NCBI RefSeq assembly: GCF_003568865.1
Contig: NZ_CP031115.1
Coordinates: forward strand, 1,922,001 to 1,986,000
Direction: 5' to 3'
Source of the DNA: Rubrobacter indicoceani
GTDB lineage: Bacteria > Actinomycetota > Rubrobacteria > Rubrobacterales > Rubrobacteraceae
Length of the DNA: 64,000 bases
Shown here: positions 41,735 through 56,631 of the stretch, piece by piece
Layout of the letters: each line of letters begins with the position of its first letter
Position numbering within the stretch: position 1 is the stretch's first letter
The notes under the pieces: generated by a model
What the model was told of the DNA's origin: nothing
The model's input: only the letters and a program-made list of their open reading frames with translations
Databases searched by the model: none
Translations under genes and position numbers: made by a program

Positions 41735-43144
41735 GTGCAGACCGAAGTTTCAAGCCTGGATGTCTACAACGAAGCAAGGACCGAAAGCGGCGAGGTCCGT
41801 TCCGCCTACCAGCCACTTCTCGAAGCCTTCGAGGTGATGGGCCCCTCCTTGCGCTCCGAGCGCCGCAGGAAAGCCGCGCGGAGGCTCCGGGAACTCGGGG
41901 CGACCTTCGACCTTCCGGACGGAGATGGCGGCGGGAGCCGCATCCTCCCCGCCGACTGGACCCCGCGCATCGTCCCTCGGGAGCACTGGGAAGCCCTCTC
42001 GAACGGGCTGCTCCAGCGAGGTCGGGCCATAAATGCCTGGCTCTCCGACCTCTACGACGGAGACCCCGGCGAGCAGTCCGTCGTCCCGGAAGAGGTCGTT
42101 CGCTCGAGCGCGCTCTACAGCCCCCGCGCCTTCCCCGGCTCCGAGACTACCTATCCCGTACACGTCTACGGTCCGGATGTGGTCCACCTCGGGGACGGCG
42201 ACTACGTAGTTCTGGAAGATAACGTCCGCGTCCCGAGCGGCGCGGCCTACGCCGACTCCATCCGCAGGGTCGGGCGCGAAGTCTACAGAGACGTGTACGA
42301 GGCCTATCCCTCGGAGGTCGGGGAGATCTCGGGCTACTACGGGATGCTCCGCGCAACCCTCGAAGCCGCCGCCCCGCCCGACGTCACCGAGCCGCACCTC
42401 GCGCTTCTCACGGGCGGGCGCGGGGATTCCGCGTACTTCGAACACCGGCATCTGGCAGGGGTCTGCGACCTTGAACTCCTCACCCCCGAAGACCTCGACG
42501 TAAAAACAGAAAAGGTGGTCTCCCGGAACACCGGACGCCGGATAGACGTTATCTACCGCCGGGCGGACGACGGGGGTGTGATCTCGGACATAAACGGTCT
42601 CGGGCGGGTCTGCCGGGAGAACCACGTCGCCATCGTAAACGCTCCGGGCGTCGGCATCGCCGATGACAAAGCCGTCTTTCCGTACGTGCCCGAGATGATC
42701 CGGACCTACCTGAAAGAGGACCCGCTTCTCTCTTCCGCAACCACCCTCCCGCTCGCAGACCCGGACCGGCGCGGGGAGGCCCTCGACCGCCTCCCCGAAC
42801 TCGTCCTGAAGCCGCGCGAGGGCTACGGCGGCCTCGGCGTCGTTATCGGCCCCGAAGCCGACGAGGCGACGCTCGCCGAAGCCCGGCGCAACGTCTCCGG
42901 AAACCCGGATGCCTTTATAGCGCAGGAGTGCCTCAATTTCTCGACCCACGTCACCGACCCGCACGCAAGCGGCGAAGCAGACAGCAAGCCGAACGAGTGC
43001 TTTATAGACCTCCGGGCGTTTGTCCTGCCGGTCGTCGGCTACGCGATGCCCGGCGGCCTGACCCGCGTCGCGAAACCCGGAACGCGCGTAGTCAATTCCT
43101 CGTCGGGCGGCGGTTTCAAGGACACATGGGTCCTGCAGGGTTAG
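41735..43144 (+). CDS. Circularly permuted ATP-grasp type 2 (DUF404/DUF407) peptide-ligase-like protein
   Basis: A 469-residue member of the circularly permuted ATP-grasp family: WTPRIVPREHWEALSNGLLQR, FLADLYD-like AWLSDLYDGDPGE, YVVLEDNVRVPSGAAY, GVGIADDKAVFPYVPEMIR and the glycine loop LKPREGYGGLGVVIG. These are predicted to form amide bonds between a carboxylate and an amine using ATP. Family members usually sit with alpha-E (DUF403) and transglutaminase genes; neither is here. Instead an amidotransferase and a DUF1028 gene follow. Start is GTG. A hairpin spans the stop codon. Confidence 0.85.
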   Translation: MQTEVSSLDVYNEARTESGEVRSAYQPLLEAFEVMGPSLRSERRRKAARRLRELGATFDLPDGDGGGSRILPADWTPRIVPREHWEALSNGLLQRGRAINAWLSDLYDGDPGEQSVVPEEVVRSSALYSPRAFPGSETTYPVHVYGPDVVHLGDGDYVVLEDNVRVPSGAAYADSIRRVGREVYRDVYEAYPSEVGEISGYYGMLRATLEAAAPPDVTEPHLALLTGGRGDSAYFEHRHLAGVCDLELLTPEDLDVKTEKVVSRNTGRRIDVIYRRADDGGVISDINGLGRVCRENHVAIVNAPGVGIADDKAVFPYVPEMIRTYLKEDPLLSSATTLPLADPDRRGEALDRLPELVLKPREGYGGLGVVIGPEADEATLAEARRNVSGNPDAFIAQECLNFSTHVTDPHASGEADSKPNECFIDLRAFVLPVVGYAMPGGLTRVAKPGTRVVNSSSGGGFKDTWVLQG

Positions 43145-43230: not shown

Positions 43231-45009
43231 ATGTGTGGCATCTGCGGTGAAGTTCGCAAGGACGACAACGCGCCCGACGTAGGCGCGGTCGCCCGGATAA
43301 ACAAAGAGATGACCTCGCGCGGCCCCGACGGCGCAGGCGTCTGGTCGCAGGGAAAGGTGGCCCTGGCGCACCGGAGGCTCCGTATAATAGACCTCTCCGA
43401 AGGCGGGTCCCAGCCGATGGTGGATCCGGACCTCGGCCTCACCATCACCTTCAACGGCTGCATCTATAATTATCCGGAACTCCGCGACGAGCTGCGGAAG
43501 TCCGGCTACCGCTTCTTCTCCACCTCCGACACGGAAGTTTTGCTCAAGGCCTACCACAAGTGGGGCGAGGATTTCGTAAGCCACCTCAAGGGGATGTTCG
43601 CCTTCTGCATCGTCGAGCGCGACTCCGGCAGGGTCGTCCTCGGGCGCGACCGGCTCGGTATAAAACCGCTCTACCTCGCGGAGACGGACAGCCGCCTCCG
43701 CTTCGCCTCGACTTTACCCGCCCTGCTCGCGGGCGGCGGCGTGGATACGACGGTGGACCCGGTCGCGCTGCACCACTACATGATGTTCCACGCCGTCGTC
43801 CCGGCCCCGCACACCATCCTGAAGGGCATTCGAAAGCTCGACCCGGCGACGCTCCTTATAATCGAGCCGGACGGCAGGAGGCGGAAGGTACGCTACTGGA
43901 ACCCGGCCTTCGCCCGCAACCCCGACCACGACGGCATGACGGAGAACGACTGGCAGGACGCCATCCTCTTGTCGCTCAAAACCGCCGTAGAGCGGCGCAT
44001 GGTCTCGGACGTACCCGTCGGGGTGCTGCTCTCCGGCGGCCTCGATTCAAGCATCATCGTCGGGCTTCTGGCGGAGCTTGGTCAGAAAAACCTCCAGACC
44101 TTCAGCGTCGGCTTCGAGGCGGTCGGTGGGATAGAGGGCGACGAGTTCGAGTTCTCGGACCTCATAGCCGATCACTACGGCACGGATCACCACAAGCTCA
44201 TGGTCTCCTCGGAGAAGATGCTCCCCGCGCTCGGTCAGGCGATAGGCGCGATGAGCGAGCCGATGGTCAGCCACGACGTGGTTGGTTTCTACCTGCTCTC
44301 CGGCGAGGTCGCAAAGCACCTGAAGGTGGTTCAGTCCGGTCAGGGTGCGGACGAGGTCTTTGCCGGATACGGCTGGTATCCCCCGCTCGAAGGCGCCGAA
44401 GACAGCGGCCTCGACACCTACGAAGGCGAGTTCTTCGACCGTCCGAGAAGCGAGATGGAGGACGCCATAAGCCCCGAATACCTCGCCGCCACCGACGTAT
44501 CCCGCGAGTTCGCCGAGGCCCACTTCGACCAGCCCGGCGCCGACACGCCGCTTGACCGGGCCCTCCGCCTCGACTCGCGCGTCATGCTCGTTGACGACCC
44601 GGTGAAGCGCGTGGACAACATGACGATGGCCTGGGGCCTCGAAGCCCGCGTCCCGTTCCTCGACCACGACCTTGTAGAGCTCGCCGCCGCCTGCCCGACG
44701 GAGCTCAAGCTCGCCCACGACGGCAAGGGCGTGCTGAAGGAAGCGTCCCGGCGAGTTATCCCGAACAGGGTCATAGACCGCCCGAAGGGATATTTTCCGG
44801 TCCCGGCTCTAAAGCACCTGGAAGGCAGGTACCTTGACCTGGTGCGCGAGGCTCTGAACGCGCCGGAGGCCCGGGAGCGCGGGCTGTTCGGCAGGGCTTA
44901 CGTGGATCACCACCTCGCCGCCCCGAACGACGGGAAGACGCGCCTCGGCTCCAACAAGCTCTGGCAGCTCGGGTTGCTCGAACTCTGGCTTCAGGAGCGC
45001 GGGGTCTAA
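43231..45009 (+). CDS. Glutamine-dependent amidotransferase, asparagine-synthase type (N-acetylglutaminylglutamine amidotransferase-like)
   Basis: Residues 2-190 are a class II glutaminase with nucleophile Cys2 (CGICGEVRKDD), RGPDGAGVW and DRLGIKPLYL; residues 230-590 are the AsnB synthetase domain with the PP-loop VGVLLSGGLDSSIIVGLL and SGQGADEVFAGYGWYPP. Amidotransferases of this type transfer ammonia to an adenylated carboxylate. The sequence looks closest to the amidotransferase of N-acetylglutaminylglutamine amide synthesis rather than to plain AsnB, but this is from memory of the family. GGGAG precedes the ATG. The neighbours are a peptide ligase and a hydrolase. Confidence 0.88.
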   Translation: MCGICGEVRKDDNAPDVGAVARINKEMTSRGPDGAGVWSQGKVALAHRRLRIIDLSEGGSQPMVDPDLGLTITFNGCIYNYPELRDELRKSGYRFFSTSDTEVLLKAYHKWGEDFVSHLKGMFAFCIVERDSGRVVLGRDRLGIKPLYLAETDSRLRFASTLPALLAGGGVDTTVDPVALHHYMMFHAVVPAPHTILKGIRKLDPATLLIIEPDGRRRKVRYWNPAFARNPDHDGMTENDWQDAILLSLKTAVERRMVSDVPVGVLLSGGLDSSIIVGLLAELGQKNLQTFSVGFEAVGGIEGDEFEFSDLIADHYGTDHHKLMVSSEKMLPALGQAIGAMSEPMVSHDVVGFYLLSGEVAKHLKVVQSGQGADEVFAGYGWYPPLEGAEDSGLDTYEGEFFDRPRSEMEDAISPEYLAATDVSREFAEAHFDQPGADTPLDRALRLDSRVMLVDDPVKRVDNMTMAWGLEARVPFLDHDLVELAAACPTELKLAHDGKGVLKEASRRVIPNRVIDRPKGYFPVPALKHLEGRYLDLVREALNAPEARERGLFGRAYVDHHLAAPNDGKTRLGSNKLWQLGLLELWLQERGV

Positions 45010-45853: not shown

Positions 45854-46804
45854 CTACTCTACGGATTTCGGGTCGAGGGCGTCGCGCAGCCCGTCGCCGA
45901 GGAAGTTCACGCAGACGGCGGTTACAACGATCATAGCGGCCGGGAAAAGGGTCAGCCACCACGCCTGGGTGATGGTCGTCCTTGCGTCTTCTAGAAGGTT
46001 GCCCCACGACGGGGTCGGCGGCTGTATTCCGAGGCCGAGAAACGAGAGCGCGCTCTCGAGCAGGATCGCATCTGCGGTTACGAGCGTCGCCTGAACGACC
46101 ATCACCCCGACGACGTTCGGCAGGACGTGGCGAACCATAGTCGTAGTGTTGGAGACTCCTATCGCCTTAGCCGCCTGCACGTACTCCTGACTTCGAAGGG
46201 AGAGAACCTGGGAGCGCACGACCCGCGCGATGGACGGCCAGAGGAGCAGAACGAGCGCAAACGAGATAGTGACGGCGGTGAAGTTCAGGACGCTCCCGAG
46301 GACAAGCAGAAACGGCAGCAGAGGCAGCGTCAGCATAAAGTCCAGAAAGCCCACGGAGAGCGTATCCAGACGCCCCCCGGTAAAGCCCGAGAAGATCCCG
46401 ACCGCCGCCCCGATAAGCGTCGAGAACACCCCGACAGAGAGACCGGCTATCAGCGAGACGCGACCGCCGTACAGCACGCGGGTGAGCTGGTCGCGCCCGA
46501 GGCTGTCGGCCCCGAACGGATGGGCGAGGGTCGGGCCGGAGGAGAGGGCGGTGTAGTCTATGGCATCGTAGTCGTAGGGGGCGATAAGCGGCGCGGCGAG
46601 CGCGAGGAGATAGAGGAGCAGAAGTATCACCCCGCAGCCCATCGCGATGCGGTGCCTGCGAAAACGCCGCCAGATGATCTCCCGCTGGGTCCGGCCCGCG
46701 ACCCGCCCCGACCCGGCGCTACGGTCGTCATCAACCGCTCCGGCAGCCCCTGCGCTTCCCTCCGGCGATACGTTTCTCACGTTATTTCTGTCCAAGAGAA
46801 CCAC
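45854..46804 (-). CDS. oppC: Oligopeptide ABC transporter permease OppC
   Basis: A membrane permease with a charged N-terminal extension of about 45 residues, then six helices. The EAA cytoplasmic loop is visible (EYVQAAKAIGVSNTTTMVRHVLPN). The family C-terminus has LGIQPPTPSWGNLLEDAR and ALDPKS. It pairs with OppB upstream in the same operon (32-base gap). The ATPases and binding protein are encoded beyond the three plus-strand genes. Confidence 0.93.
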   Translation of the reverse strand: MVLLDRNNVRNVSPEGSAGAAGAVDDDRSAGSGRVAGRTQREIIWRRFRRHRIAMGCGVILLLLYLLALAAPLIAPYDYDAIDYTALSSGPTLAHPFGADSLGRDQLTRVLYGGRVSLIAGLSVGVFSTLIGAAVGIFSGFTGGRLDTLSVGFLDFMLTLPLLPFLLVLGSVLNFTAVTISFALVLLLWPSIARVVRSQVLSLRSQEYVQAAKAIGVSNTTTMVRHVLPNVVGVMVVQATLVTADAILLESALSFLGLGIQPPTPSWGNLLEDARTTITQAWWLTLFPAAMIVVTAVCVNFLGDGLRDALDPKSVE

Positions 46805-46836: not shown

Positions 46837-47796
46837 TCAGTCATAGCTGATCCTCGGGTCGACCGCCGCGTACACGATGTCCGCCATCAGGTTAAAGAAC
46901 ACCGTCAGGACCGCGATGATTATCAGTATCCCCCGCGCGATGTTGTAGTCGCCCTTGTAGAGGCTGTCTATAAACAGAAAGCCAAGCCCCGGCCACGCAA
47001 AGACCGTCTCCGTGATCACGGCCCCCGCAAGCAGCGTCCCGAGCGACAGGGCGACAAGCGTTACCGTCGGGATAAGCGCGTTTCTGAGCGCGTGCTTGAA
47101 GTACACGACGTTGCCCGACAGCCCCTTCGCCCGCGCCGTTCGCAGGTAGTCCGAGTTAAGCACGTCAAGCATCGCAGACCTCTGGAATCGGCTGAAGCTC
47201 GCGATGCTTATAGCCGAGAGCGCAAAGACGGGCAGGGCCATGTGCTGCACGAGGTCGACGAAACCACCCGTATCGGTCATCCCGGAGGTGTAGAAAAACC
47301 GCGTCCCCGTGGCGTTGGTCAGGTAGACGCCGAAGACAAGCTGCAGGAGGATGCCCATAAGGAACGTCGGGGTCGAGAAGCCGATAAAGGCGAGGACGGT
47401 CGCGGTGTTGTCGAGGGTGCTGTACTTCTTTATCGCCTGATACACCCCGAGCGGGATGGCGATGGCGAGCGTAACGAGCAGGGAAGTCCCCATAAGAAGC
47501 ACCGTCGGGTAGACGCGGCGGCCTATGATCTCGGCGACGGGGGCGTTCTGCTTGAAGCTCACCCCGAAATCGCCCTGAAAGATGCCGCTGATCCAGATCC
47601 AGTACTGCACCCAGAGCGGCTGGTTCAGCCCGTAGAGGTTGGCTATGCGCTCGATGTCGTCGGGCTGGACTCGCGGGTTCTGGCGAAGGTCCGTCAGCGG
47701 GTCCCCGGCGAGCGTTACAAGAAGGAAAATTGCGATGCTCGCAAAGAAGAGCACTACGAAGCTGAAGAGCGTCCTGCGCACGATGTAGGCGAACAT
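46837..47796 (-). CDS. oppB: Oligopeptide ABC transporter permease OppB
   Basis: A 319-residue permease with six helices. Family features: N-terminal FAYIVRRTLFSFVVLFFASI, VQYWIWISGIFQGDFGVS, and the EAA loop SDYLRTARAKGLSGNVVYFKHALRNALIP. The C-terminus ends VYAAVDPRISYD as usual for OppB/DppB. The strong GGGGGAGG precedes the ATG. The first gene of the permease pair. Confidence 0.94.
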   Translation of the reverse strand: MFAYIVRRTLFSFVVLFFASIAIFLLVTLAGDPLTDLRQNPRVQPDDIERIANLYGLNQPLWVQYWIWISGIFQGDFGVSFKQNAPVAEIIGRRVYPTVLLMGTSLLVTLAIAIPLGVYQAIKKYSTLDNTATVLAFIGFSTPTFLMGILLQLVFGVYLTNATGTRFFYTSGMTDTGGFVDLVQHMALPVFALSAISIASFSRFQRSAMLDVLNSDYLRTARAKGLSGNVVYFKHALRNALIPTVTLVALSLGTLLAGAVITETVFAWPGLGFLFIDSLYKGDYNIARGILIIIAVLTVFFNLMADIVYAAVDPRISYD

Positions 47797-48087
47797 TGCC
47801 CGCTACCTCCCCCAGGCTTCGGAAAAATCCCGCAACTGCCTCTGACTTTTCGCAGTATAGCGAGAACCCGACCGTCTTCTTGTCGTTCCCCGCGCTCCCG
47901 TCCGAACCAGGGGCTTTTCAGAGGCTCTGGCGGGTTGTTTTCGGGTGACAGGAACCGATGATGAAGAACCCGTCACCGGCAATAAAGACCAGCCTGCACG
48001 CGACCGACCGCTTTTCTATTCCTCCACCTGGCCGCGGCCGGAGAGCTGGAAACCGAGAGCCGGAAACCGGGAACGTTTCAGGATCTT
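47797..48087. other. Intergenic region upstream of oppB and downstream of the CxxC repeat protein
   Basis: 291 bases with no supported gene. The oppB-proximal part has a GGGGGAGG ribosome-binding site and a possible TATACT -10 near 47858 on the minus strand, with no convincing -35. A 14-base near-repeat (GAGAGCTGGAAACC and GAGAGCCGGAAACC) lies near 48040. No terminator with a U tract follows the repeat-protein stop. Confidence 0.4.
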
Positions 48088-50817
48088 CTAAAAAGAGACG
48101 ACCCGAACCGCCGGGCCTGCAGGTCGGCGAGTTCCGTACCGGATGCGCCTCCTGCGACACCTCGGGTTCTGCCGGACCTGAGCCGGGTTCTCCGCGTTCC
48201 CGGACGGCAACGATTCCGCGCCTCCCTCGCTCGCCGCCGAAGATTCCGAGCCGGGGTCCCCTTCCGTGTAGCTCGGTTCCGTGTAGCTCGGTTCCGTGTA
48301 GCTCGGTTCCGTGTAGCTCGGTTCCGTGTAGCTCGGTTCCGTGTAGCTCGGTTCCGTGTAGCTCGGTTCCGTGTAGCTCGGTTCCGTGTAGCTCGGTTCC
48401 GTGTAGCTCGGTTCCGTGTAGCTCGGTTCCGTGTAGCTCGGTTCCGTGTAGCTCGGTTCCGTGTAGCTCGGTTCCGTGTAGCTCGGTTCCGGTGCGAGCG
48501 TCTCCTGCGTCGGGAGGCTTTCCTGCGTCGGAGGCGGCGGGACGTACTGCGGCACGACCGGCTCCGCAACTCCGGGGTTCTGCGGGTATGTTGCTTCGGG
48601 TTCGGGCGCGATGCTCGCGGTACCGTAGCCGCTCTGGGTGTAGCCGCCCTGCAGGCTGGCTGTCTGTTCCTGCGCCTGAAGCACCGTCCCCGGTTGCGCG
48701 GTGCCTTGCGCGCCGGCGGTCGCGGTTCCGCTGGCCCCGCAGACAACGCAGGTCTGCTCGTAGGATTGCTGCTGATCTGTTGAGGGCGGACTCTGGGAGA
48801 TCACCTGATACACCCGACCACCGTTGGCGGTCGCCCCACCGCCCGTGGCGCTGGCGCTCGCCGAAGACCCGGGTTGAGGTGCTGCCGCCGTCTGATGGCC
48901 CTCACCCTGGGTGGCGGTTCCGCCCGTCGCGGTTCCGCCGCCGCCGCCCGTCGCCGTCCCACCCGGGGCGCAGTAATTACAGAAATTCTCCGCCCGCTGC
49001 ACGTAAAGTACTTCGTGCGTCGTGCCGGATGGTTCCTGAGGTGGAGGAGCCATTATCCGCTGCTGGACTATCCCCTGATAGACCAGCCCGCCGCCGGCAA
49101 AGGCGTCGCCGCCGTTTGCGCTCGCGTCGGCTCCGGCGACGCCGCCGCTTCCGCTTTGAGAAGAACCTTCGGAGACCGCAGGCGTACCCCCGCTTACCGT
49201 TCCGTCGCCCGGTGAGCCGCCGGTGGCGAGCCCGCCGTCGCCACCCGTCGCCGTGCCGCCGGTCGCCTCGCCTCCCGAGCCGCCGACCGCCGTACCGCCG
49301 TCGCCGCAGTAGTTGCAGACGTTCTGTGCGACCTGCTCGTAGACTACCTTTCCGACCCATACCGGAACGTCTACTATCGGGATCTGAACCTGCTGTACAA
49401 GCTGGTATACGCGACCACCGAAAGCCCCTGCGTCGCCACCGTTTGCGCTGGCGTCGGCGCTGGCCGGGCCACCGTCGCCGCCCGTCGCCGCGCCACCGTC
49501 GCCGCCCGCCGCAAGAGAGCCCGAACCGGAGACGGCGTCGCCGCCCGAGCCGCCCAGAGCGCCGCCGCCCGAGCCGCCCGTCGCCGTACCGCCCGTCGCC
49601 GTACCGCCCTCTCCGGCCGAGGCCGTCCCGCCCGAGCCGCAGTAGTTGCAAATGTTCTGTGCGACCTGACGGAATATCACCGTCTCCGCCCACTCGGGGA
49701 TCATGGCCCCGACGGGTGCCTGGACCTGTTTCACGGCCTGCGCAACCAGGCCGCCGTTTGCCCCGACTTCGCCACCGTTTGCGCTGGCGTCGGCGCTGGC
49801 CGGGCCACCGTCGCCGCCCGTCGCCGCGCCACCGTCGCCGCCCGCCGCAAGAGAGCCCGAACCGGAGACGGCGTCGCCGCCCGAGCCGCCCAGAGCGCCG
49901 CCGCCCGAGCCGCCCGTCGCCGTACCGCCCGTCGCCGTACCGCCCTCTCCGGCCGAGGCCGTCCCGCCCGAGCCGCAGTAGTTACAGACCGTTCGGGCGA
50001 TCTGCTCGAAGATGATCGTCTTTGTCTTCGGATCTGAGATAACGTTGAAGAATGACCCGGAGGTGAGATCGGATGAACCCGTGCTGACGACCTCCAGCAG
50101 CTGGCTCGCGCCCTGCTGGACCACGCCCCCGAGCGAGAGCGCATCGCTCCCGTCTGCGCTCGCGTCGCTCTCAGCCGAACCGCCGTTTCCGGCGGTGGCC
50201 GATCCCCCGGCGCCTCCGGTAGCGGTTCCACCGCTACCGGGTACGGCGCTCCCGTCCTGTCCCATCCCCCCCGGCACGCCCGAAACGCCGGGCGAACCAT
50301 CGCCGTTGGTCGCGGTCCCGGCGGCCCCGCCGCCGCCACCGGAGGCGTTTCCCGCCGAGCCGCCCTGTCCCCCGGTGGCCAGACCACCGTCGCCCCCGAC
50401 GGTGCCGCCGCCCTGTCCCCCGGTGGCGACGCCGCCCGTCGCCGTTCCGCCGCCGCCCGCCTCGGACTCCCCGCCGTTGGCGCACACGTCACACGCCTGA
50501 GAAGAATCCTGCGTCACCTTTACCGGGGCCGGAGGGGCCGTCGGTCCGGGAGTGGTCTTTGCAGGCTTCTTTACTGGGGCCTTGACCGGTTTCTTGACGG
50601 GGGCCTTCTTCCTGGCCGAGCCGGAAGTCGTGTTGGACTTGCTGCCGACCTGAGCCTTTACAACCTGAGAGTTGGAGGGACCGGAAGGCTTCTTGCCGGA
50701 GGTCTTCGCCTCAGCGACCGAGAAGGCCGAGAAAAAGAGCGCGAACACAAGGATCAGGATAAGCGCCGCCACGGCTCCCCGACCAAACCACCCGCTGATC
50801 CTCCCCGCTACGTTCAT
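48088..50817 (-). CDS. Secreted glycine-rich modular repeat protein with CxxC motifs and TEPSY tail
   Basis: No family recognised. ATG 50817 has GGGGGAGG upstream and begins a signal peptide (GAVAALILILVFALFFSAF, cut near AEA). A Lys/Pro linker (KKAPVKKPVKAPVKKP) follows. Six modules come next, each opening with CxxC (CDVC, CNYC four times, CVVC), then GGTATGG-type Gly/Thr/Ala runs, an ADASANGG-like step and a hydrophobic Gln/Val strand (VYQLVQQVQIPI). The C-terminus has 15 TEPSY repeats and an Arg-rich end. The 909-residue protein is probably extracellular or wall-associated; cysteine pairs could crosslink or bind metal. A longer frame to 51027 is less likely. Confidence 0.75.
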   Translation of the reverse strand: MNVAGRISGWFGRGAVAALILILVFALFFSAFSVAEAKTSGKKPSGPSNSQVVKAQVGSKSNTTSGSARKKAPVKKPVKAPVKKPAKTTPGPTAPPAPVKVTQDSSQACDVCANGGESEAGGGGTATGGVATGGQGGGTVGGDGGLATGGQGGSAGNASGGGGGAAGTATNGDGSPGVSGVPGGMGQDGSAVPGSGGTATGGAGGSATAGNGGSAESDASADGSDALSLGGVVQQGASQLLEVVSTGSSDLTSGSFFNVISDPKTKTIIFEQIARTVCNYCGSGGTASAGEGGTATGGTATGGSGGGALGGSGGDAVSGSGSLAAGGDGGAATGGDGGPASADASANGGEVGANGGLVAQAVKQVQAPVGAMIPEWAETVIFRQVAQNICNYCGSGGTASAGEGGTATGGTATGGSGGGALGGSGGDAVSGSGSLAAGGDGGAATGGDGGPASADASANGGDAGAFGGRVYQLVQQVQIPIVDVPVWVGKVVYEQVAQNVCNYCGDGGTAVGGSGGEATGGTATGGDGGLATGGSPGDGTVSGGTPAVSEGSSQSGSGGVAGADASANGGDAFAGGGLVYQGIVQQRIMAPPPQEPSGTTHEVLYVQRAENFCNYCAPGGTATGGGGGTATGGTATQGEGHQTAAAPQPGSSASASATGGGATANGGRVYQVISQSPPSTDQQQSYEQTCVVCGASGTATAGAQGTAQPGTVLQAQEQTASLQGGYTQSGYGTASIAPEPEATYPQNPGVAEPVVPQYVPPPPTQESLPTQETLAPEPSYTEPSYTEPSYTEPSYTEPSYTEPSYTEPSYTEPSYTEPSYTEPSYTEPSYTEPSYTEPSYTEPSYTEPSYTEGDPGSESSAASEGGAESLPSGNAENPAQVRQNPRCRRRRIRYGTRRPAGPAVRVVSF
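48266..48490 (-). repeat. 15-bp tandem repeat, 15 identical copies
   Basis: GTGTAGCTCGGTTCC (plus strand) repeats 15 times without a single change over 225 bases. On the coding strand it encodes the pentapeptide TEPSY in tandem. The unit length is a multiple of three, so copy-number change keeps the frame. There are no spacers, so it is not CRISPR. Confidence 0.97.
49433..49647 (-). repeat. Copy A of a 215-bp identical internal duplication
   Basis: By eye, 49433-49647 matches 49769-49983 base for base at an offset of 336 bases (112 codons). It covers the Gly-rich part of a CxxC module. Flanking parts of the two modules differ clearly, so this looks like recent duplication or gene conversion. 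Confidence 0.85.
49769..49983 (-). repeat. Copy B of the 215-bp identical internal duplication
   Basis: Second copy of the repeat at 49433-49647, in the adjacent CxxC module. Both copies encode the run from SGSGSLAAGGDGG-type sequence back to the CNYCG motif. Confidence 0.85.
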
Positions 50818-50931
50818 GAGTCCTCCCCCGGAGCTTCCCTTGTCCAGCATCATCCGGTCTGCCGGAAGATGTTCGCCGTTCTTGCCGCCGCCGTGTAGAG
50901 ATGTCATTCTGATATATCGTTCTGAAAATTC

Positions 50932-50971
50932 TGAAAAGTAAGAAGAGCCGGAACGGAATTCGCGCTCCGGC
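50932..50971 (-). terminator. Rho-independent terminator after the 672-aa repeat protein gene
   Basis: On the minus strand GCCGGAGCG and CGTTCCGGC pair (one G-U) around CGAATTC, followed by TCTTCTTACTTTT. It lies about 65 bases beyond the stop at 51037 and insulates the two repeat-protein genes from each other. Confidence 0.8.
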
Positions 50972-51036
50972 CCAGAGATCGGCCTGTACTTACCGCTGAA
51001 AGACCGCTCGTAGATATCAGGCCCCATGATCCCGGT

Positions 51037-53055
51037 TTACGGCAGGGTCGGGAGAGCTATGGGCAGAACCGCTATCTGCTGGGTCTGCGTGGAACTCTGG
51101 CTGACGCTGCCGCCGCTGGAAGTGGCGGGGGCGCCATTGGCCCCCGCACTCGCATTTGCATCGCCGCCTGCGCCGCCGGTCGCGTCGCCGCCCGAACCGC
51201 TCGTGGCGTCGCCGCCCGAGCCGCCGTTGGCGCTGCCGCCGTCGCCGCCGTTGCCGCCGTTGCCGGTCGTCGCGTCGCCGCCCGAACCACCGGTCGCGTC
51301 ACCGACGTTGCCGCTCGTGGCGCTTCCACCGCTGCCGGTCGTGGCGTTGCCGCCCGAACCGCTGGTGTTGCCGCCTACCGTACCGCCCGTCGTGGTCGTC
51401 GAACCGGTCGAGTTGCTACCGTTCGTGCCGCCCGTGGAGGAGACGTCGCCGGTCGAGTTGGTGCCGACCGAACCACCGGTCGAGGTAGCGTCGTTGTCGG
51501 TGAAGGAACCACCGGTCGCGCCGCCCGTCGTGGTCGTCGAGCCTGAGGAGGTACCGCCGATGGTACCGCCGGCTGCCCCCGCGTCGCCGGTCAGGTTGCC
51601 GTTGCCGGAACCGCCGGTCGTAGTCGTGCCGCCCGTAGAGGAAAAACCACTTGTGCCGCCGGTCGCGCCGCCACCGTCGCCGCTGGTGGAGCCGCCAACG
51701 TCACCGCTCGTAGAGCCGCCGCCCGCCCCGGTCGAGGTATCGCCGACGGAGCTGCCCGCCGCGGTGTCGCCGGTACCGGTAGCACCGACGTTGCCGCTCG
51801 TAGAGCCGCCGCCCGAGCCGGTGGAGTTTCCGCTTGCGGAGCCGCCGGTGGCAGCGCCGCCCGAGCCAGTCGAAGAGCTACTCGCGCCACCGGTCGAATC
51901 TCCGCCTGCGCCGCCGGTAGAGTCGCCGGTGCTACAGGAAGTATTTCCGCTGGTGCTGGTGGCGTCCGCCGAAGCGGCCGCACCGCTCACCGGGACTGCG
52001 GTAGTAACGGGGATACAGGCTCCCTGGTTGCTGCCTCCGGTTGAGGTGCCGCCGTTGCTGCCGGTAGATTCACCGCCAGCCGCGCTCGAGGTACCGCTCG
52101 TACCACCGGTCGCCATTCCGCCGGTTGCGGTCGAGGTGCCGCTCGCGCCGCCGGTCGAAGTACCGCTCGTGCCGCCGGTCGAATCCCCGCTGCCGTCCAG
52201 GTTGACCGCTATCGGGACCGCCACGGCCGTGCCGCTGCCGCCGCCCTGAGACGTGCCGCTGCTCCCGCCCGTCGTCGCGCCGCTGCCGCCGCCCGTAGCG
52301 GAGCCGACGTTGCCGCTTGTGGAAGTGCCGCTTGATGCGCCGTTGGCCACACCGTCCGCGGCCTGGTCGTTGATCTGACCGCTTGTCGCCGTGCCGCTGG
52401 CGTTGGCGTTGTTGTTCGCGTCGCCGCTTGACGCGCCGTTTGCCGTGCCGCCGCTGGAGCTTGCGTCACCGGAGGCGTTTGACTGTGATCCGCCGCCGCT
52501 GGCGCTCGCGTTGCCGCTCGTGGCGCCGGTGGAGTTGGCCTGACCGTTGTGGGTCGCGCCGCCACTTGATGCGCCGTTGGCCACACCGTCCGCGGCCTGG
52601 TCGTTGATCTGACCGCTCGCACCGCCCGTGGCCGTGCCGCTGCCGCCGCCCGTAGCGGTGGACGAGCCGTTGTTGGTCCCGGCCGCGCCGCTCCCGGCGT
52701 TGGCCGTTCCGCTTGCCGCTCCGGCTCCGCCCGAGGCGTCGCCGCCGGAAGCTCCGGCCCCGGCGTTGGCCTGGCCGCCGCTTCCGGCGTTGCCCGCACC
52801 ACCCGGGGCACCCGCCGCGTCGCCGCCCACGGAGATCCCACCGAAGCCGCCGACGGCCTTGCCGCCGTTGCCTCCCGTAGCATTCTGCCTTGAAACCTGC
52901 GCGGGACTGTTCTTCTTGACCTTGACGACTTTGTGCTTCTTCGGCTTGTGCTGGCCTTTGTAACCCGCTGTAGCCATGGCTGTAGTAGGTGTAACTGCCA
53001 TGATGATGACCGCGATCATTGCCACGAATAACATCATCTTCTTCACGATTTGCAC
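51037..53055 (-). CDS. Secreted Gly/Ser/Thr/Asn-rich repeat protein
   Basis: No family recognised. GTG 53055 has AGAAGGAGG nine bases upstream and starts a signal peptide (KKMMLFVAMIAVIIMAVTP, cut after AMA). A Lys-rich stretch (QHKPKKHKVVKVKKN) follows, then about 560 residues of TGG/GSG/SGN low-complexity sequence. SGQINDQAADGVANGASSG occurs twice, encoded by 53-base identical DNA at 52331-52383 and 52565-52617. Only two Cys (ACIPV, SCSTG) are present. The C-terminus is SVSQSSTQTQQIAVLPI. Composition resembles the CxxC protein downstream, so the two probably share a surface role. Confidence 0.75.
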   Translation of the reverse strand: MQIVKKMMLFVAMIAVIIMAVTPTTAMATAGYKGQHKPKKHKVVKVKKNSPAQVSRQNATGGNGGKAVGGFGGISVGGDAAGAPGGAGNAGSGGQANAGAGASGGDASGGAGAASGTANAGSGAAGTNNGSSTATGGGSGTATGGASGQINDQAADGVANGASSGGATHNGQANSTGATSGNASASGGGSQSNASGDASSSGGTANGASSGDANNNANASGTATSGQINDQAADGVANGASSGTSTSGNVGSATGGGSGATTGGSSGTSQGGGSGTAVAVPIAVNLDGSGDSTGGTSGTSTGGASGTSTATGGMATGGTSGTSSAAGGESTGSNGGTSTGGSNQGACIPVTTAVPVSGAAASADATSTSGNTSCSTGDSTGGAGGDSTGGASSSSTGSGGAATGGSASGNSTGSGGGSTSGNVGATGTGDTAAGSSVGDTSTGAGGGSTSGDVGGSTSGDGGGATGGTSGFSSTGGTTTTGGSGNGNLTGDAGAAGGTIGGTSSGSTTTTGGATGGSFTDNDATSTGGSVGTNSTGDVSSTGGTNGSNSTGSTTTTGGTVGGNTSGSGGNATTGSGGSATSGNVGDATGGSGGDATTGNGGNGGDGGSANGGSGGDATSGSGGDATGGAGGDANASAGANGAPATSSGGSVSQSSTQTQQIAVLPIALPTLP

Positions 53056-53589
53056 GATTCGCACCTCCTTCTGTCTGCTCTTGGATCTTCTGCTTGCCCG
53101 TAATGCCCCTGAACCGGCCGGGTCCCTCTGCCCGCTGTGCCTCTCCCTGATACCCACCTCGCCTTCCCTGGTTAGCAAGAATTTTCTGACTCACCTTTCC
53201 CTCAGCAATGATCTCCCGAGGCACGAAACCTGTAATCGCTTAAATGGGCGATCTTTGTCTGGCCCAAATGCGCTAGCCGTACCCCCCCGGCGCCCTCACC
53301 CCACACCAGGCCCGTAATCCCGTTCCAAAGCGGAGATCCGGGCCTCGAAGGCCTCATTCGACCAGACCTCGAAGCTGCATCTCACCCTCTACCGCACGTG
53401 CAGGTTCAGCGTCTGGTAGAGGTTACGGGGTTAGTGAAAGGCGTGGTTGTCCGGGTGGTAGTCCATTTGGGTTAGTGATACTTGGCTCAAATACGCGATG
53501 TGCCGTCTGCCGGGGGCGGTTAGATTGGTTTGCAGGCGGGATCGTTCGGGTCTCGGAGGCGTAGACGGCATCAGAAGGAGGTGAGACAC
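53056..53589. other. Long divergent intergenic region between repeat protein and precursor peptide genes
   Basis: 534 bases with no supported gene. The side next to the repeat protein gives a leader of up to about 230 nt that may be structured: CCTCG/CGAGG arms enclose 53157-53225. The middle contains TGGGC/GCCCA arms near 53245-53270. An 8-bp hairpin (CCTCTACC at 53386-53393, GGTAGAGG at 53415-53422) and two GGGTTAGTGA boxes lie before the peptide gene. No standard -35/-10 pair was clear. Confidence 0.5.
53428..53478 (+). promoter_or_regulatory. Two GGGTTAGTGA direct repeats upstream of the precursor peptide gene
   Basis: GGGTTAGTGA occurs at 53428-53437 and 53469-53478, 41 bases (about four helical turns) apart, in the same orientation. 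GGGTTAGT is also found on the minus strand at 55645-55652 upstream of the 111-residue gene of the same island. They may be binding sites for a common activator, possibly the LuxR-type regulator nearby. Confidence 0.45.
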
Positions 53590-53808
53590 GTGGAGAAAGA
53601 ACGCACAGGTGGAACGGGTCTGAATAGGGAAGAGCTGGAGGCTCAGTCGGCCGGGTTGCTCCCCGATCGTCTGGAGATGAGGCATCGGCGGCACGGAAGG
53701 CGCAGGAGGGGCCGGGGGCTGGTCCTCGTTATCGTTGACGACGGCAACCAGTTCAACAACGGCATCTACTATCCGCCACCGTACTACACGCAGCCGCCGG
53801 CAGTATAG
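53590..53808 (+). CDS. Small putative ribosomal-peptide (RiPP-like) precursor
   Basis: Begins at GTG 53590, seven to nine bases after a near-perfect AAGGAGGTGA. The 72-residue product has a leader-like acidic helix (LNREELEAQSAGLLPDRLEM, residues 11-30), an Arg-rich block (RHRRHGRRRRGRG, 31-43), a hydrophobic stretch (LVLVIVDDG) and a Tyr/Pro/Asn-rich tail (NGIYYPPPYYTQPPAV). The LPDR-type leader, with a short variable tail, resembles small peptide precursors in actinobacteria. There is no signal peptide. A terminator follows, then a protease with a PqqD-like domain. Modification or cleavage is inferred, not shown. Confidence 0.6.
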   Translation: MEKERTGGTGLNREELEAQSAGLLPDRLEMRHRRHGRRRRGRGLVLVIVDDGNQFNNGIYYPPPYYTQPPAV

Positions 53809-53847
53809 GGTTTTGCGTGCATCACGCACGATGAGAGACGGGGCAGC

Positions 53848-53878
53848 GGGGATGGACTTTCGAGTCGTCCCCGTTTTT
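53848..53878 (+). terminator. UUCG-loop terminator between precursor peptide and protease genes
   Basis: GGGGA/TCCCC and GACT/AGTC form a stem with a small internal bulge closed by a TTCG tetraloop, followed by GTTTTTC. This intrinsic terminator lies between the peptide stop (53808) and protease start (53902). A small hairpin (GCGTG/CACGC, 53815-53827) precedes it. It would make the short peptide message more abundant than the protease message. Confidence 0.75.
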
Positions 53879-53901
53879 CGTGTCTCGAGAGGAACTGCAG
53901 A

Positions 53902-55218
53902 TTGACCGCCGCCAGAGAGACTGCCGACCACAAGAACGCATCGCAGGGGGTGAGGTTCGCGCCCGCAGAGGGTCTGGACTTCATCGGGGAGTATCGGGAC
54001 TCCGGGCTCGCCGATCCGCCGTATCTGGTGCGTCGGGCGGACGGTCAGGTCGTGCAGTTGTCGCGCCTGCTGTACCTGCTCGTCGGTTGTATGGACGGGT
54101 TCCGGGACGCAGAGGAGATCTCCGAGCGCGTGAGCCTTGAGTTCGGTCGCCGGGTGACGGCACAGAACGTCGAGTTTCTGGTAGAGAAAAAGCTTCTGTC
54201 TCTCGGTTTGCTCGCGGCGGGTGGCGGCTCCGACCTCGCGCCGCCGAGGCTGGACGCAGCGTTTCTCGGGTTGCGGTATCGCATCGGGCTGCTCTCCGCC
54301 GGTACTGTCTGGAAGGCGACGACCCCGTTTCTGTGGCTGTTTCGTCGCGGGGTGATGGTCGGGATGCTCGTCGCCCTGCTTGCGCTGGACGTGTGGGCGC
54401 TCGCGTTTCACGGTGTGCTCGAAGGGGTGCAGGAGATCCTTTACCAGCCGTCGCTGATCCTTGCTTTCGTGGCGATAGAGATGTTCGCGATGGCGTGGCA
54501 CGAGTGCGGCCACGCGGCGGCCTGTCGTTACGGCGGTGCGAAGCCGGGCGTGGTCGGGGTCGGGATCTACGTTATATGGTTTGTTTTCTACAGCGACGTG
54601 ACCGACTCTTACCGGCTCGATAAACGCGGACGGCTCAGAACCGACGCGGGCGGACTTTATTTCGACGCCATCTTCACGCTCGGCATAGCCGCAGCCTACT
54701 TCCTTACCGGCTTCGAGCCGTTGCTGATCCTCGCCCTTCTGAACCAGCTGAACGCCCTCGATGAGTTCTCGCCGTTTCTGCGCCTCGACGGCTACTACAT
54801 AATGAGCGACCTCACGGGTATCCCGGACCCTTTCAAGTACGTAAAGCCCGTCCTGCTCGGCCTGATACCGGGCCGCACCCCCGCACCGGAGGTCCGGGCC
54901 ATGAAACCCTGGGTTCGGAGGATCATAACGTTATGGGTGCTCTCGGTCGTCCCGGTGCTCTTCGTGGGGCTCGGGGTCTTGATCTTCTACGGGCCCTGGT
55001 TTCTTTCTAAGGCCTGGGATTCCCTGCGGGTTCAGCTGGCCGGGCTCTCCGAGGCGACTCGCGAGGGAACCGCCCCCGAGGTCTTGCTCGGCCTGCTGAA
55101 CGTGGCCGCGCTTCTCATTCCGGTGCTGGGCGGGACGCTGCTTTTGCTGGCCGTTTTCGGAGGAATTCTGAGAAGGGTGCGCCGTCGCCTGAACCGGAGC
55201 GGCTGCTCCACAGGCTGA
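53902..55218 (+). CDS. Membrane zinc metalloprotease (M50/site-2-like) with N-terminal PqqD-like domain
   Basis: Residues 35-105 resemble the PqqD/RRE winged-helix domain (QVVQLSRLLYLLVGCMDGFRDAEEI, VTAQNVEFLVEKKLLSLGLL), which in RiPP systems binds precursor leaders. Residues 140-438 form a multi-helix membrane protein with the zinc motif HECGH (200-204) and the second metal motif SPFLRLDGYYIMSD (Asp296), as in putative peptide zinc metalloproteases. The start is TTG 53902 with GAGAGG upstream. It lies 93 bases after the precursor gene on the same strand, past a terminator, and likely processes or exports that peptide. Confidence 0.8.
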   Translation: MTAARETADHKNASQGVRFAPAEGLDFIGEYRDSGLADPPYLVRRADGQVVQLSRLLYLLVGCMDGFRDAEEISERVSLEFGRRVTAQNVEFLVEKKLLSLGLLAAGGGSDLAPPRLDAAFLGLRYRIGLLSAGTVWKATTPFLWLFRRGVMVGMLVALLALDVWALAFHGVLEGVQEILYQPSLILAFVAIEMFAMAWHECGHAAACRYGGAKPGVVGVGIYVIWFVFYSDVTDSYRLDKRGRLRTDAGGLYFDAIFTLGIAAAYFLTGFEPLLILALLNQLNALDEFSPFLRLDGYYIMSDLTGIPDPFKYVKPVLLGLIPGRTPAPEVRAMKPWVRRIITLWVLSVVPVLFVGLGVLIFYGPWFLSKAWDSLRVQLAGLSEATREGTAPEVLLGLLNVAALLIPVLGGTLLLLAVFGGILRRVRRRLNRSGCSTG

Positions 55219-55259
55219 GCCGGCAACGATTCGCTGATCACTCTTTCGGAGCGCGAAGC

Positions 55260-55595
55260 TCAGCCTTCGAGCGCGAGCAGAGCCTCGTCCAGAACGCCGA
55301 GGATATCCGACACTTCGAGGTTCTGGATAATCCTTACCTCCCCGCCGAACCCGACCCGCGAAACAGGGCCGTCATCCGGGTGCAACTCAATCCAGAAAGG
55401 GACCGCAGACTCCATCGCCGGGGTGATGCGGTTGCAGATCACGAACTGCGGTCGCTGCTTTGTGATCTCGGCGTCGAGGTTCATCCAGTTGACCCTAATA
55501 ACCTCGATGTCCGGTCGCTCAAGCTCCACGATGCCGGCGATGGCCTCCTGGTACGATCTCCACTCGTTGGCTACTAGCAGCTTCGTAATGCACAT
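55260..55595 (-). CDS. 111-residue unknown protein, receiver-like fold suspected
   Basis: Function unknown. The alternating pattern (KLLVANEW, DIEVIRVNW, PQFVICNR, EVRIIQNL, ILGVLDEALLALEG) looks like a small alpha/beta response-regulator receiver, but the phospho-acceptor Asp and the conserved Lys are not in place. It could be a pseudo-receiver protein. It is convergent with the protease gene and downstream of the LuxR-type regulator. GGGTTAGT lies upstream at 55645-55652, shared with the precursor peptide promoter region. Confidence 0.6.
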   Translation of the reverse strand: MCITKLLVANEWRSYQEAIAGIVELERPDIEVIRVNWMNLDAEITKQRPQFVICNRITPAMESAVPFWIELHPDDGPVSRVGFGGEVRIIQNLEVSDILGVLDEALLALEG

Positions 55596-55678
55596 GCCTT
55601 ATAGTCTCATATTCGCAAAACCATATCATCCCTGACATGGACCAACTAACCCTAGCTCATTTGTATGAGGAACGCGCG

Positions 55679-55714
55679 AACCGGTTTTGTAACGGGTGTT
55701 ACGGACAACCGGTT
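55679..55714. promoter_or_regulatory. Nested palindrome AACCGGTT ... GTAAC/GTTAC ... AACCGGTT
   Basis: AACCGGTT at 55679-55686 and 55707-55714 flank GTAAC (55689-55693) and GTTAC (55698-55702) around GGGT. The whole element is symmetric and could form a cruciform or hairpin. It lies between the LuxR-type regulator (stop 55721) and the 111-aa gene and has no U tract, so an operator is more likely than a terminator. Confidence 0.55.
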
Positions 55715-55720
55715 CCTTTG

Positions 55721-56413
55721 CTAGAAGCTGATGAGACCGTGCCGGGCGACAAAGACCACGGCTTGGAGGCGAGAATGCACCCCGAGTTTGGTCAGGATGT
55801 TGACGATGTGGGTCCGTTCCGTTTCAAGGGCGATGTGGAACTTCTTTGCTATCTCCTTGCTGTCCAGTCCCTCGGCGAGCGCGCTCAGAATCTCCCGCTC
55901 CCGGGCGGTGAGCCGGGCGAAGGCCTTTTCTGCCTCGCGGTCGCCGTAGCGTTTCTTGCTCGCTATACGGAGCATCTCGATGATCTCCTGCGAAGAGAGC
56001 AGAGCCTCTCCGGCCCGGACGCTGCGTACCGAATCCACTATCCGGTCGAGGGCCACGGTCTTGTGTATGACCCCGGAGGCCCCGGCCTCTACCGCACGGG
56101 CGAAATCGTCCCGGTCGAGGCTCGCCGTGAGCACCAGAGTGCTTACGCCGCTCTCCGCCAGATGCCGGACGAGGTCTACCCCGTCGCCGTCCGGGAGCCC
56201 GAGGTCCACGACCGCGATGTCCACCACTTCGTCGTGCCGCTCTATCGCCTCCCTCGCCTCCGACATGCTCCCGACGTGGCACACCACCTCGAAGCCCGGC
56301 TCGGTGTCGAGGAAATAAGCCAGCGACTGGCGAAAGGAGATGTGATCCTCGACCAGCATGATCCCGGTCGCAGTGTCATCCTCGGTTTCTTCGCGCCGTT
56401 CCAGAGACATCAT
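55721..56413 (-). CDS. NarL/LuxR-family response regulator without adjacent kinase
   Basis: The receiver domain (residues 15-130) has GIMLVEDHISFRQSLAYFL, the phospho-acceptor Asp in VVDLGLPDGDGVDL, VLTASL and the conserved Lys in GVIHKTVALD. The LuxR helix-turn-helix (about residues 165-225) has LTAREREILSALAEGLDSKEIAKKF and HIVNILTKLGVHSRLQAV. ATG 56413 follows GGAGG by six bases. No histidine kinase is encoded nearby, so it may be an orphan or use a distant kinase. Its position suggests control of the peptide/protease island. Confidence 0.9.
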   Translation of the reverse strand: MMSLERREETEDDTATGIMLVEDHISFRQSLAYFLDTEPGFEVVCHVGSMSEAREAIERHDEVVDIAVVDLGLPDGDGVDLVRHLAESGVSTLVLTASLDRDDFARAVEAGASGVIHKTVALDRIVDSVRSVRAGEALLSSQEIIEMLRIASKKRYGDREAEKAFARLTAREREILSALAEGLDSKEIAKKFHIALETERTHIVNILTKLGVHSRLQAVVFVARHGLISF

Positions 56414-56577
56414 CTCTAACCTCCGATACAGGGAAATACCCTTTCCGACCCCGGGTTGTTACTCCAGCCCGCACATTACGCTGTAAACAGAGGTTCGGCA
56501 ACCGCCGCCTGGCATACTACCCCGGCTGCGTTTCGATACATCCAGCACGAGGGGCGCGCCCCGGGCACCTGTCCCTG

Positions 56578-56606
56578 GAGAGCGGAGATCCGAGATCTCC
56601 GCTCTC
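56578..56606. terminator. Perfect 13-bp inverted repeat downstream of the binding-protein gene
   Basis: GAGAGCGGAGATC (56578-56590) and GATCTCCGCTCTC (56594-56606) pair perfectly around CGA, 26 bases beyond the stop at 56632. The stem is very stable. The minus-strand tail has no U run, so this may terminate weakly or block 3' decay. Confidence 0.65.
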
Positions 56607-56631
56607 TGTTTCCGGGGCTTTTGAGGAAGGT

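What the first reader, a model, noticed from the sequence alone, without database searches (positions are those of the whole stretch)
48088..50817. Secreted modular protein with six CxxC-Gly-rich modules
Seen: each module opens with CxxC, followed by GGTATGG runs, an ADASANGG step and a Gln/Val strand, all after a signal peptide and a Lys/Pro linker. I recognise no family. Evenly spaced cysteine pairs in a Gly-rich chain suggest disulfide crosslinking or metal binding in an extracellular matrix, which is inference.
Basis: partly seen in the sequence, partly recalled or inferred. Interest (0 to 1): 0.65.

Follow-up and report, generated by a model that had tools for sequence, protein, structure and literature searches.

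The report
Orphan secreted glycine-octad CxxC protein
A bacterium, probably a Rubrobacter, carries a pair of secreted, glycine-rich repeat proteins that matched nothing known; one has six cysteine pairs set between its repeats, and the pair most likely builds part of the cell's outer coat or matrix.

Summary
Window 48088-50817 (-) encodes a 909-aa protein with a signal peptide, a Lys/Pro linker and six CxxC pairs (12 of its 13 Cys). The modules are less even than described: Cys-to-Cys steps are 169, 112, 111, 112 and 77 aa, module 6 is degenerate, and modules 2 and 3 are near-identical DNA (215 of 216 bases over 72 codons). The Gly pattern has period 8 (GGxGGxAx), not the period 3 of PE_PGRS or collagen-like chains. 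Both genes lie in an 8.8-kb stretch between the solute-binding and permease genes of an oligopeptide ABC operon, which are 52-175 bp apart in 7 of 7 relatives examined. No Pfam, NCBIfam or PHROGs family, nor PDB sequence, matches. The module profile hit only this genome among 39 of its family and 396 of its phylum. AlphaFold gave no usable model (pLDDT 40-44). Best reading: a lineage-specific structural envelope or matrix protein pair, with CxxC as disulfide (or metal) staples. Fold, Cys state and function are inference.

The parts
48088..50817 (-). P0001: 909-aa secreted modular CxxC/Gly-octad protein
50707..50817 (-). signal-peptide-like N-terminus (residues 1-37, ...SVAEA|KTSG; cleavage site is my reading)
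   Evidence: hydropathy; cleavage inferred
50494..50706 (-). Lys/Pro-rich linker, residues 38-108
   Evidence: 15 K+R, 1 D+E over 37-108
49987..50493 (-). module 1 (CDVC, 169 aa)
49651..49986 (-). module 2 (CNYC, 112 aa)
49318..49650 (-). module 3 (CNYC, 111 aa; first 72 codons 215/216 identical to module 2)
48982..49317 (-). module 4 (CNYC, 112 aa)
48751..48981 (-). module 5 (CNYC, 77 aa, shortened)
48552..48750 (-). module 6 (CVVC, degenerate), running into a Pro/Gln-rich stretch; the range is the row aligned
48262..48491 (-). 15.3 identical 15-bp units encoding (EPSYT)n
51037..53055 (-). P0002: neighbour secreted Gly/Ser/Thr octad protein (GTG start after AGGAGG is my reading; ORF open from 53178)
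   Evidence: C-terminal block 51073-51336 matches the module profile at E 7e-7
50945..50973 (-). terminator-like hairpin between P0002 and P0001 (11 bp stem, T-rich tail)
   Evidence: consensus scan; 10 such sites found, 4.3 expected
47797..56631 (.). 8.8-kb stretch between the SBP gene (56632-58326 -) and the DppB-type permease gene (46837-47796 -) that holds the pair

Best explanation
P0001 and P0002 are a lineage-specific pair of exported structural proteins of the cell envelope or surface matrix. Each is exported by an N-terminal signal peptide. Its Lys-rich linker holds it by charge to anionic wall polymers, and its body is a mildly acidic, Gly-rich eight-residue repeat that forms an extended or compact repeat scaffold. 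In P0001 the scaffold is cut into modules. A short Gln/Val strand ending in CxxC closes each module, and the CxxC forms a local or inter-chain disulfide that staples modules or chains; the (EPSYT)15 tail is a stalk or contact segment. Shown: the sequence anatomy, the eight-residue period in both proteins, the relation of P0002's end block to the modules, and the setting. Inferred: export by the general pathway, wall binding, the disulfides and the coat/matrix role.
For: Signal-like N-termini and Lys-rich linkers in both. Gly autocorrelation peaks at lag 8 in both (z 6.5-6.7 in P0001 278-613, 5.7-5.8 in P0002). P0002's end block scores above all shuffles against module profile A1, 0 of 900 with and 0 of 900 without composition correction. 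On the shorter junction profile A2 it is weaker: 1 of 900 with correction, 15 of 900 without. Twelve of 13 Cys in CxxC. No catalytic family found. Recent internal copying (215/216 bases between modules 2 and 3) and a perfect 15-bp array are typical of repeat-built surface proteins (general knowledge).
Against: No C-terminal anchor: no LPxTG and no second hydrophobic segment, so retention at the surface is not shown. No reliable fold: pLDDT 39.7 and 43.6, with strands in one model and helices in the other for the same junction. No expression data. The last ~30 residues (Arg-rich, running into a terminator-like hairpin) may not be the true C-terminus. With no relatives found outside the genome, no selection test across species was possible. 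CNYCG also fits a metal knuckle.
Confidence: 0.45

Rival explanations
1. The CxxC pairs are metal knuckles: CNYCG resembles the CxxCG turn of zinc ribbons and rubredoxin, and two modules together supply a Cys4 site, so the protein is a metal-stapled or metal-holding surface scaffold.
For: CxxCG in modules 2, 3, 4 and 6. The only weak Pfam hits over the modules are Cys-knuckle families (Molybdop_Fe4S4 E 0.027, Zn_ribbon_PriA E 0.12; both below cutoff). Six CxxC make three possible pairs.
Against: Modules 1 and 5 have Ala after the second Cys. Both Pfam hits cover only 11-13 residues. Extracytoplasmic thiols in an aerobic actinobacterium tend to be oxidised (general knowledge). No His or other conserved ligand nearby.
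Confidence: 0.25
2. A neutral or nearly neutral orphan: Gly-rich repeats expanded from short GC-rich octads, exported but of little function, with the CxxC pattern spread by copying.
For: Found in one genome only. Modules 2 and 3 almost identical. Perfect 15-bp array. Odd C-terminus.
Against: Modules 1, 3, 4 and 5 differ strongly in DNA but keep both Cys, Gly positions and Gln residues, and changes favour the third codon position. Two related genes keep the same layout.
Confidence: 0.2
3. A secreted substrate or partner of the nearby RiPP-type M50 protease and response regulator island (53590-56413), for example a carrier or shell for a modified peptide.
For: The genes share the same 8.8-kb stretch. 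The M50 protein resembles the daptide protease model (84.7 bits, cutoff 300).
Against: The M50 gene and its small ORF are on the opposite strand. Relatives with the M50 protein (5 of 39 genomes including this one) lack the module profile (1 of 39).
Confidence: 0.05

Closest known systems
P0002, the neighbour Gly/Ser/Thr octad protein in the same genome
   Same: signal peptide, Lys-rich linker, period-8 Gly pattern; end block related to the modules beyond composition on profile A1
   Different: no CxxC (two lone Cys), one end block instead of five, no EPSYT tail
PE_PGRS proteins of mycobacteria (polyglycine-II sandwiches)
   Same: secreted or surface, very Gly-rich, GGx-type repeats, size changes by copying
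   Different: no GRPLI motif and no PE-type match at E up to 1; Gly period 8 rather than 3; Cys-bearing modules; the module profile scores a PGRS-like protein no better than most of its shuffles' upper range (shuffles reach it in 5 of the 6 no-correction or junction-profile sets shown and in 4 of 900 with A1 correction)
   Same: signal peptide, GGxATGG runs, and one CDGC followed by GGASGTAVGGDGAEVTGG, much like CxxC-GG-TAVGG here
   Different: 304 aa, one CxxC, different C-terminus; similarity not significant once composition is corrected
G384 protein (L057/L078)
   Same: very large chain alternating Gly-rich blocks with Gln/Asn/Val stretches
   Different: no CxxC seen in the stretch read; mixed periods 3, 11 and 14; not significant against shuffles
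RTX nonapeptide repeats
   Same: two copies of GGxGxDxU in P0001
   Different: period 8 not 9, few Asp, no RTX Pfam hit

Membership tests
PE_PGRS | N-terminal PE domain and GRPLI motif | tested here: not met
   no PE family hit at E up to 1; GRPLI absent
PE_PGRS | GGX triplets, i.e. Gly period 3 (PMC10216338, passages read) | tested here: not met
   lag-8 peak, no lag-3 peak, in P0001 and P0002; PGRS-like control lag 3 at z 14.2
PE_PGRS | polyglycine-II sandwich fold | tested here: inconclusive
   AlphaFold pLDDT 39.7
Zinc ribbon / rubredoxin-type knuckle | two CxxC(G) knuckles making a Cys4 site in a recognisable domain | tested here: inconclusive
   motif present; Pfam hits below cutoff
Zinc ribbon / rubredoxin-type knuckle | bound metal | not testable with these tools
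   needs purified protein
RTX repeats | tandem GGxGxDxUx nonapeptides | tested here: not met
   2 isolated matches in P0001, 0 in P0002; period 8
Collagen-like (GXY) | Gly at every third residue | tested here: not met
   no lag-3 peak
LPXTG wall-anchored surface protein | C-terminal LPxTG, hydrophobic segment, positive tail | tested here: not met
   no LPxT[GAS]; no second hydrophobic segment
Sec-exported protein | N-terminal signal peptide | tested here: met
   MNVAGRISGWFGRG + 19-residue segment of hydropathy 2.8 + SVAEA; no dedicated signal-peptide predictor was available
Any Pfam-A, NCBIfam or PHROGs family | score above the curated cutoff (Pfam, NCBIfam) or E up to 0.01 (PHROGs) | tested here: not met

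The most novel reading that the evidence does not exclude
A previously undescribed class of bacterial structural protein: an eight-residue glycine repeat scaffold, cut into modules by Gln/Val strands and closed by CxxC staples, evolving by copying inside one Rubrobacter-like lineage and working with an uncrosslinked partner (P0002) to make a redox- or metal-set surface coat.
Probability: 0.25. Interest if true: 0.6.

Novelty: new variant of a known kind. Interest (0 to 1): 0.37.

Why it matters
Gly-rich surface proteins are poorly understood because their sequences are hard to search and fold prediction often fails on them. This pair offers a clean natural contrast, octads with and without CxxC staples in adjacent genes of one organism. 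That makes it testable whether the Cys pairs set mechanical strength, assembly or metal content. It also shows a whole gene pair present in one genome and not found by these searches in its family or phylum sample. If real and expressed, it is a compact template for a disulfide-set protein material in a lineage known for harsh dry habitats (the lineage name is inferred, the habitat recalled).

Tried and rejected
Pfam, NCBIfam, PHROGs, PADLOC and PDB sequence searches gave no family. Weak hits (Keratin_B2_2 on the EPSYT tail; Molybdop_Fe4S4 and Zn_ribbon_PriA on CxxC; REase_II on the linker) are below cutoff or low-complexity, and I rejected them as identities.

Homologue searches: the whole-protein search of 41 genomes gave four genomes besides this one, all matching only the low-complexity tail region (query residues 747-896). 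I read the frames of one of these four (L002). The best plasmid hit, in an Enterococcus faecalis SpaA pilin-related protein, is again only the EPSYT array (residues 777-852). I read it as shared low complexity, not kinship. P0002 matched no plasmid and P0001 no phage record. Two scans of genome contigs and one of viral contigs matched short patterns (44, 25 and 147 stretches) but none was confirmed by tblastn. These scans are weak for Gly-rich sequence, so absence there is not strong.

Pattern searches: GGxATGGxGG in 39 family genomes gave 5 places in 4 other genomes. All 5 were read and none lies in a Gly-rich chain like this. The longer pattern in 396 phylum genomes gave 11 places in 10 other genomes. 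Seven of the 11 were read (L057, L058, L059, L061, L064, L065, L066); three are in frame in Gly-rich chains (L057, L061, L064) and four are not. Four were not read (L060, L062, L063, L068).

Structure: both AlphaFold jobs failed (pLDDT 39.7 and 43.6), so no fold search was run. The same-genus genome G001 gave no syntenic locus: only a 23-aa match to the DUF1028 neighbour, and an ORF next to it did not align as DppB. The Rfam scan was empty. The paper PMC8325347 (abstract and passages read) came up for Rubrobacter and 'glycine-rich' but concerns type IV pilus control and does not bear on this protein. Papers seen only as search listings: the others.

Full report
WHAT IS THERE. The minus-strand ORF 48088-50817 is 909 aa long. 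It has a signal-peptide-like start, a Lys/Pro linker (15 K+R and 1 D+E over residues 37-108), and six CxxC pairs at residues 109, 278, 390, 501, 613 and 690. A Pro/Gln stretch, 15 perfect EPSYT repeats and an odd Arg-rich end follow. Twelve of 13 Cys lie in CxxC pairs; 0 of 100,000 random placements reached six pairs. The start at 50817 is preceded by a GGGGGAGGAC Shine-Dalgarno-like stretch, and differences between modules favour codon position 3 (346/317/518 at positions 1/2/3 over 10 non-independent pairs). I therefore take this frame, not the overlapping + strand ORF 47958-50015, as the gene.

THE MODULES. Modules 1-5 run CxxC - Gly octads - (AD)ASANGG - GGxVxQxxxQ - variable - VxYxQxAxN, and then the next CxxC. 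Lengths are 169, 112, 111, 112 and 77 aa; module 6 has only the CxxC and a short Thr/Ala/Gly stretch. Modules 2 and 3 are 215/216 identical in DNA over 72 codons, a recent duplication or conversion. The Gly pattern repeats every eight residues (GGSGGGAL GGSGGDAV SGSGSLAA GGDGGAAT GGDGGPAS; lag-8 z 6.5-6.7). There is no lag-3 peak, whereas a PGRS-like protein from another genome gave lag 3 at z 14.2.

THE PARTNER. The gene just upstream on the same strand (P0002, 51037-53055 by my reading of the GTG start) also has a signal-like start and a Lys-rich linker, and a Gly/Ser/Thr chain with lag-8 period (z 5.7-5.8). Its C-terminal block matches the module profile at E 7e-7. In my own test the match on profile A1 beat all shuffles (0 of 900 with composition correction, 0 of 900 without). 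On the junction profile A2 it is weaker: 1 of 900 with correction and 15 of 900 without. I take the two genes as relatives through this block. A terminator-like hairpin lies between them, so they may be transcribed apart.

THE SETTING. Downstream lie DppB- and DppC-type permease genes (46837-47796 and 45854-46804, both -). Upstream, beyond an RiPP-type M50 protease (53902-55218 +), a small ORF and a LuxR-type response regulator (55721-56413 -), lies an SBP_bac_5 gene (56632-58326 -). I examined the DppB locus in 7 of the 18 other family genomes with a strong DppB match. In all seven, an SBP-like gene sits 52-175 bp upstream of DppB (G008, G010, G015, G019, G023, G044, G046; SBP identity confirmed by comparison for G008 and G044, read by eye for the other five). 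The window's SBP is 63% identical to that of G008 and 47% to that of G044. In the window the two genes are 8,835 bp apart. So the pair sits in a stretch inserted into, or moved into, an otherwise compact operon. GC of the stretch is 0.658 against 0.644 for the window, so composition does not mark it as foreign.

DISTRIBUTION. The module profile matched 1 of 39 family genomes and 1 of 396 phylum genomes, this genome in both. A DNA pattern for the octads hit this genome 10 times, all within the two genes, with 0 reversed-pattern control hits. The organism is probably a Rubrobacter or close kin: a fragment of its second contig matched a Rubrobacter marinus plasmid at 82% over about 620 bases. The genome itself is unnamed, so this is inference.

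NEAREST ANALOGUES. The phylum pattern search brought three in-frame Gly-rich chains among the seven of 11 places that I read. One is a PGRS-like protein (it holds GRPLI; my label). One is a very large alternating Gly-rich/Gln-Asn chain. One is a 304-aa secreted protein with a single CDGC followed by GG-ASGTAVGGDGAEVTGG. The last looks strikingly like a CxxC module start. Without composition correction it beats all 900 shuffles on profile A1, but with correction 226 of 900 reach it. Kinship is therefore open.

MECHANISM. I think the pair is structural: exported, held by its basic linker, with octads as scaffold and CxxC as staples at the end of each Gln/Val strand. Export rests on sequence. The scaffold role rests on the repeat nature and the lack of any enzyme family. 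The disulfide state, wall binding and assembly are inference. The main rival is metal binding, because CNYCG resembles a zinc-ribbon or rubredoxin knuckle (recalled). The second rival is a nearly neutral orphan repeat gene. AlphaFold could not decide: pLDDT was 39.7 for two modules and 43.6 for the junction, and the two models disagree on strand versus helix.

NOVELTY. The kind (Gly-rich repeat surface protein) is known. This octad-plus-CxxC module matched no family in the libraries searched. Literature searches with the terms listed no paper whose title or shown abstract describes it; that library misses most subscription journals.

Noticed in passing
53590-53808 (+) and 53902-55218 (+): A small ORF (GGTGLNREELEAQSAGLLPDRLEM...YYPPPYYTQPPAV) followed by an M50-type membrane protease resembling the daptide protease model (84.7 bits, cutoff 300): a possible RiPP precursor-protease pair; the protease matches in 5 of 39 family genomes including this one.
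   Followed up: partly
55260-55595 (-) and 55721-56413 (-): A LuxR-type response regulator and a 111-aa ORF without family match lie in the same inserted stretch.
   Followed up: partly
48088-48261 (-): After the EPSYT array the frame becomes Arg-rich and runs into a terminator-like hairpin; the true C-terminus or an assembly frameshift is uncertain.
   Followed up: partly
L082 2501-2728 (Enterococcus faecalis plasmid NZ_CP136354.1): A SpaA pilin-related protein carries a stretch 80% identical to the EPSYT array, near its C-terminus.
   Followed up: partly
L077 5275-6189 (genome G191): A secreted 304-aa Gly-rich protein with one CDGC module-like start and a long acidic Val/Asp tail.
   Followed up: partly
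41735-43144 and 43231-45009 (+): A circularly permuted ATP-grasp gene next to an asparagine synthase-like gene, possibly a peptide-building pair.
   Followed up: no
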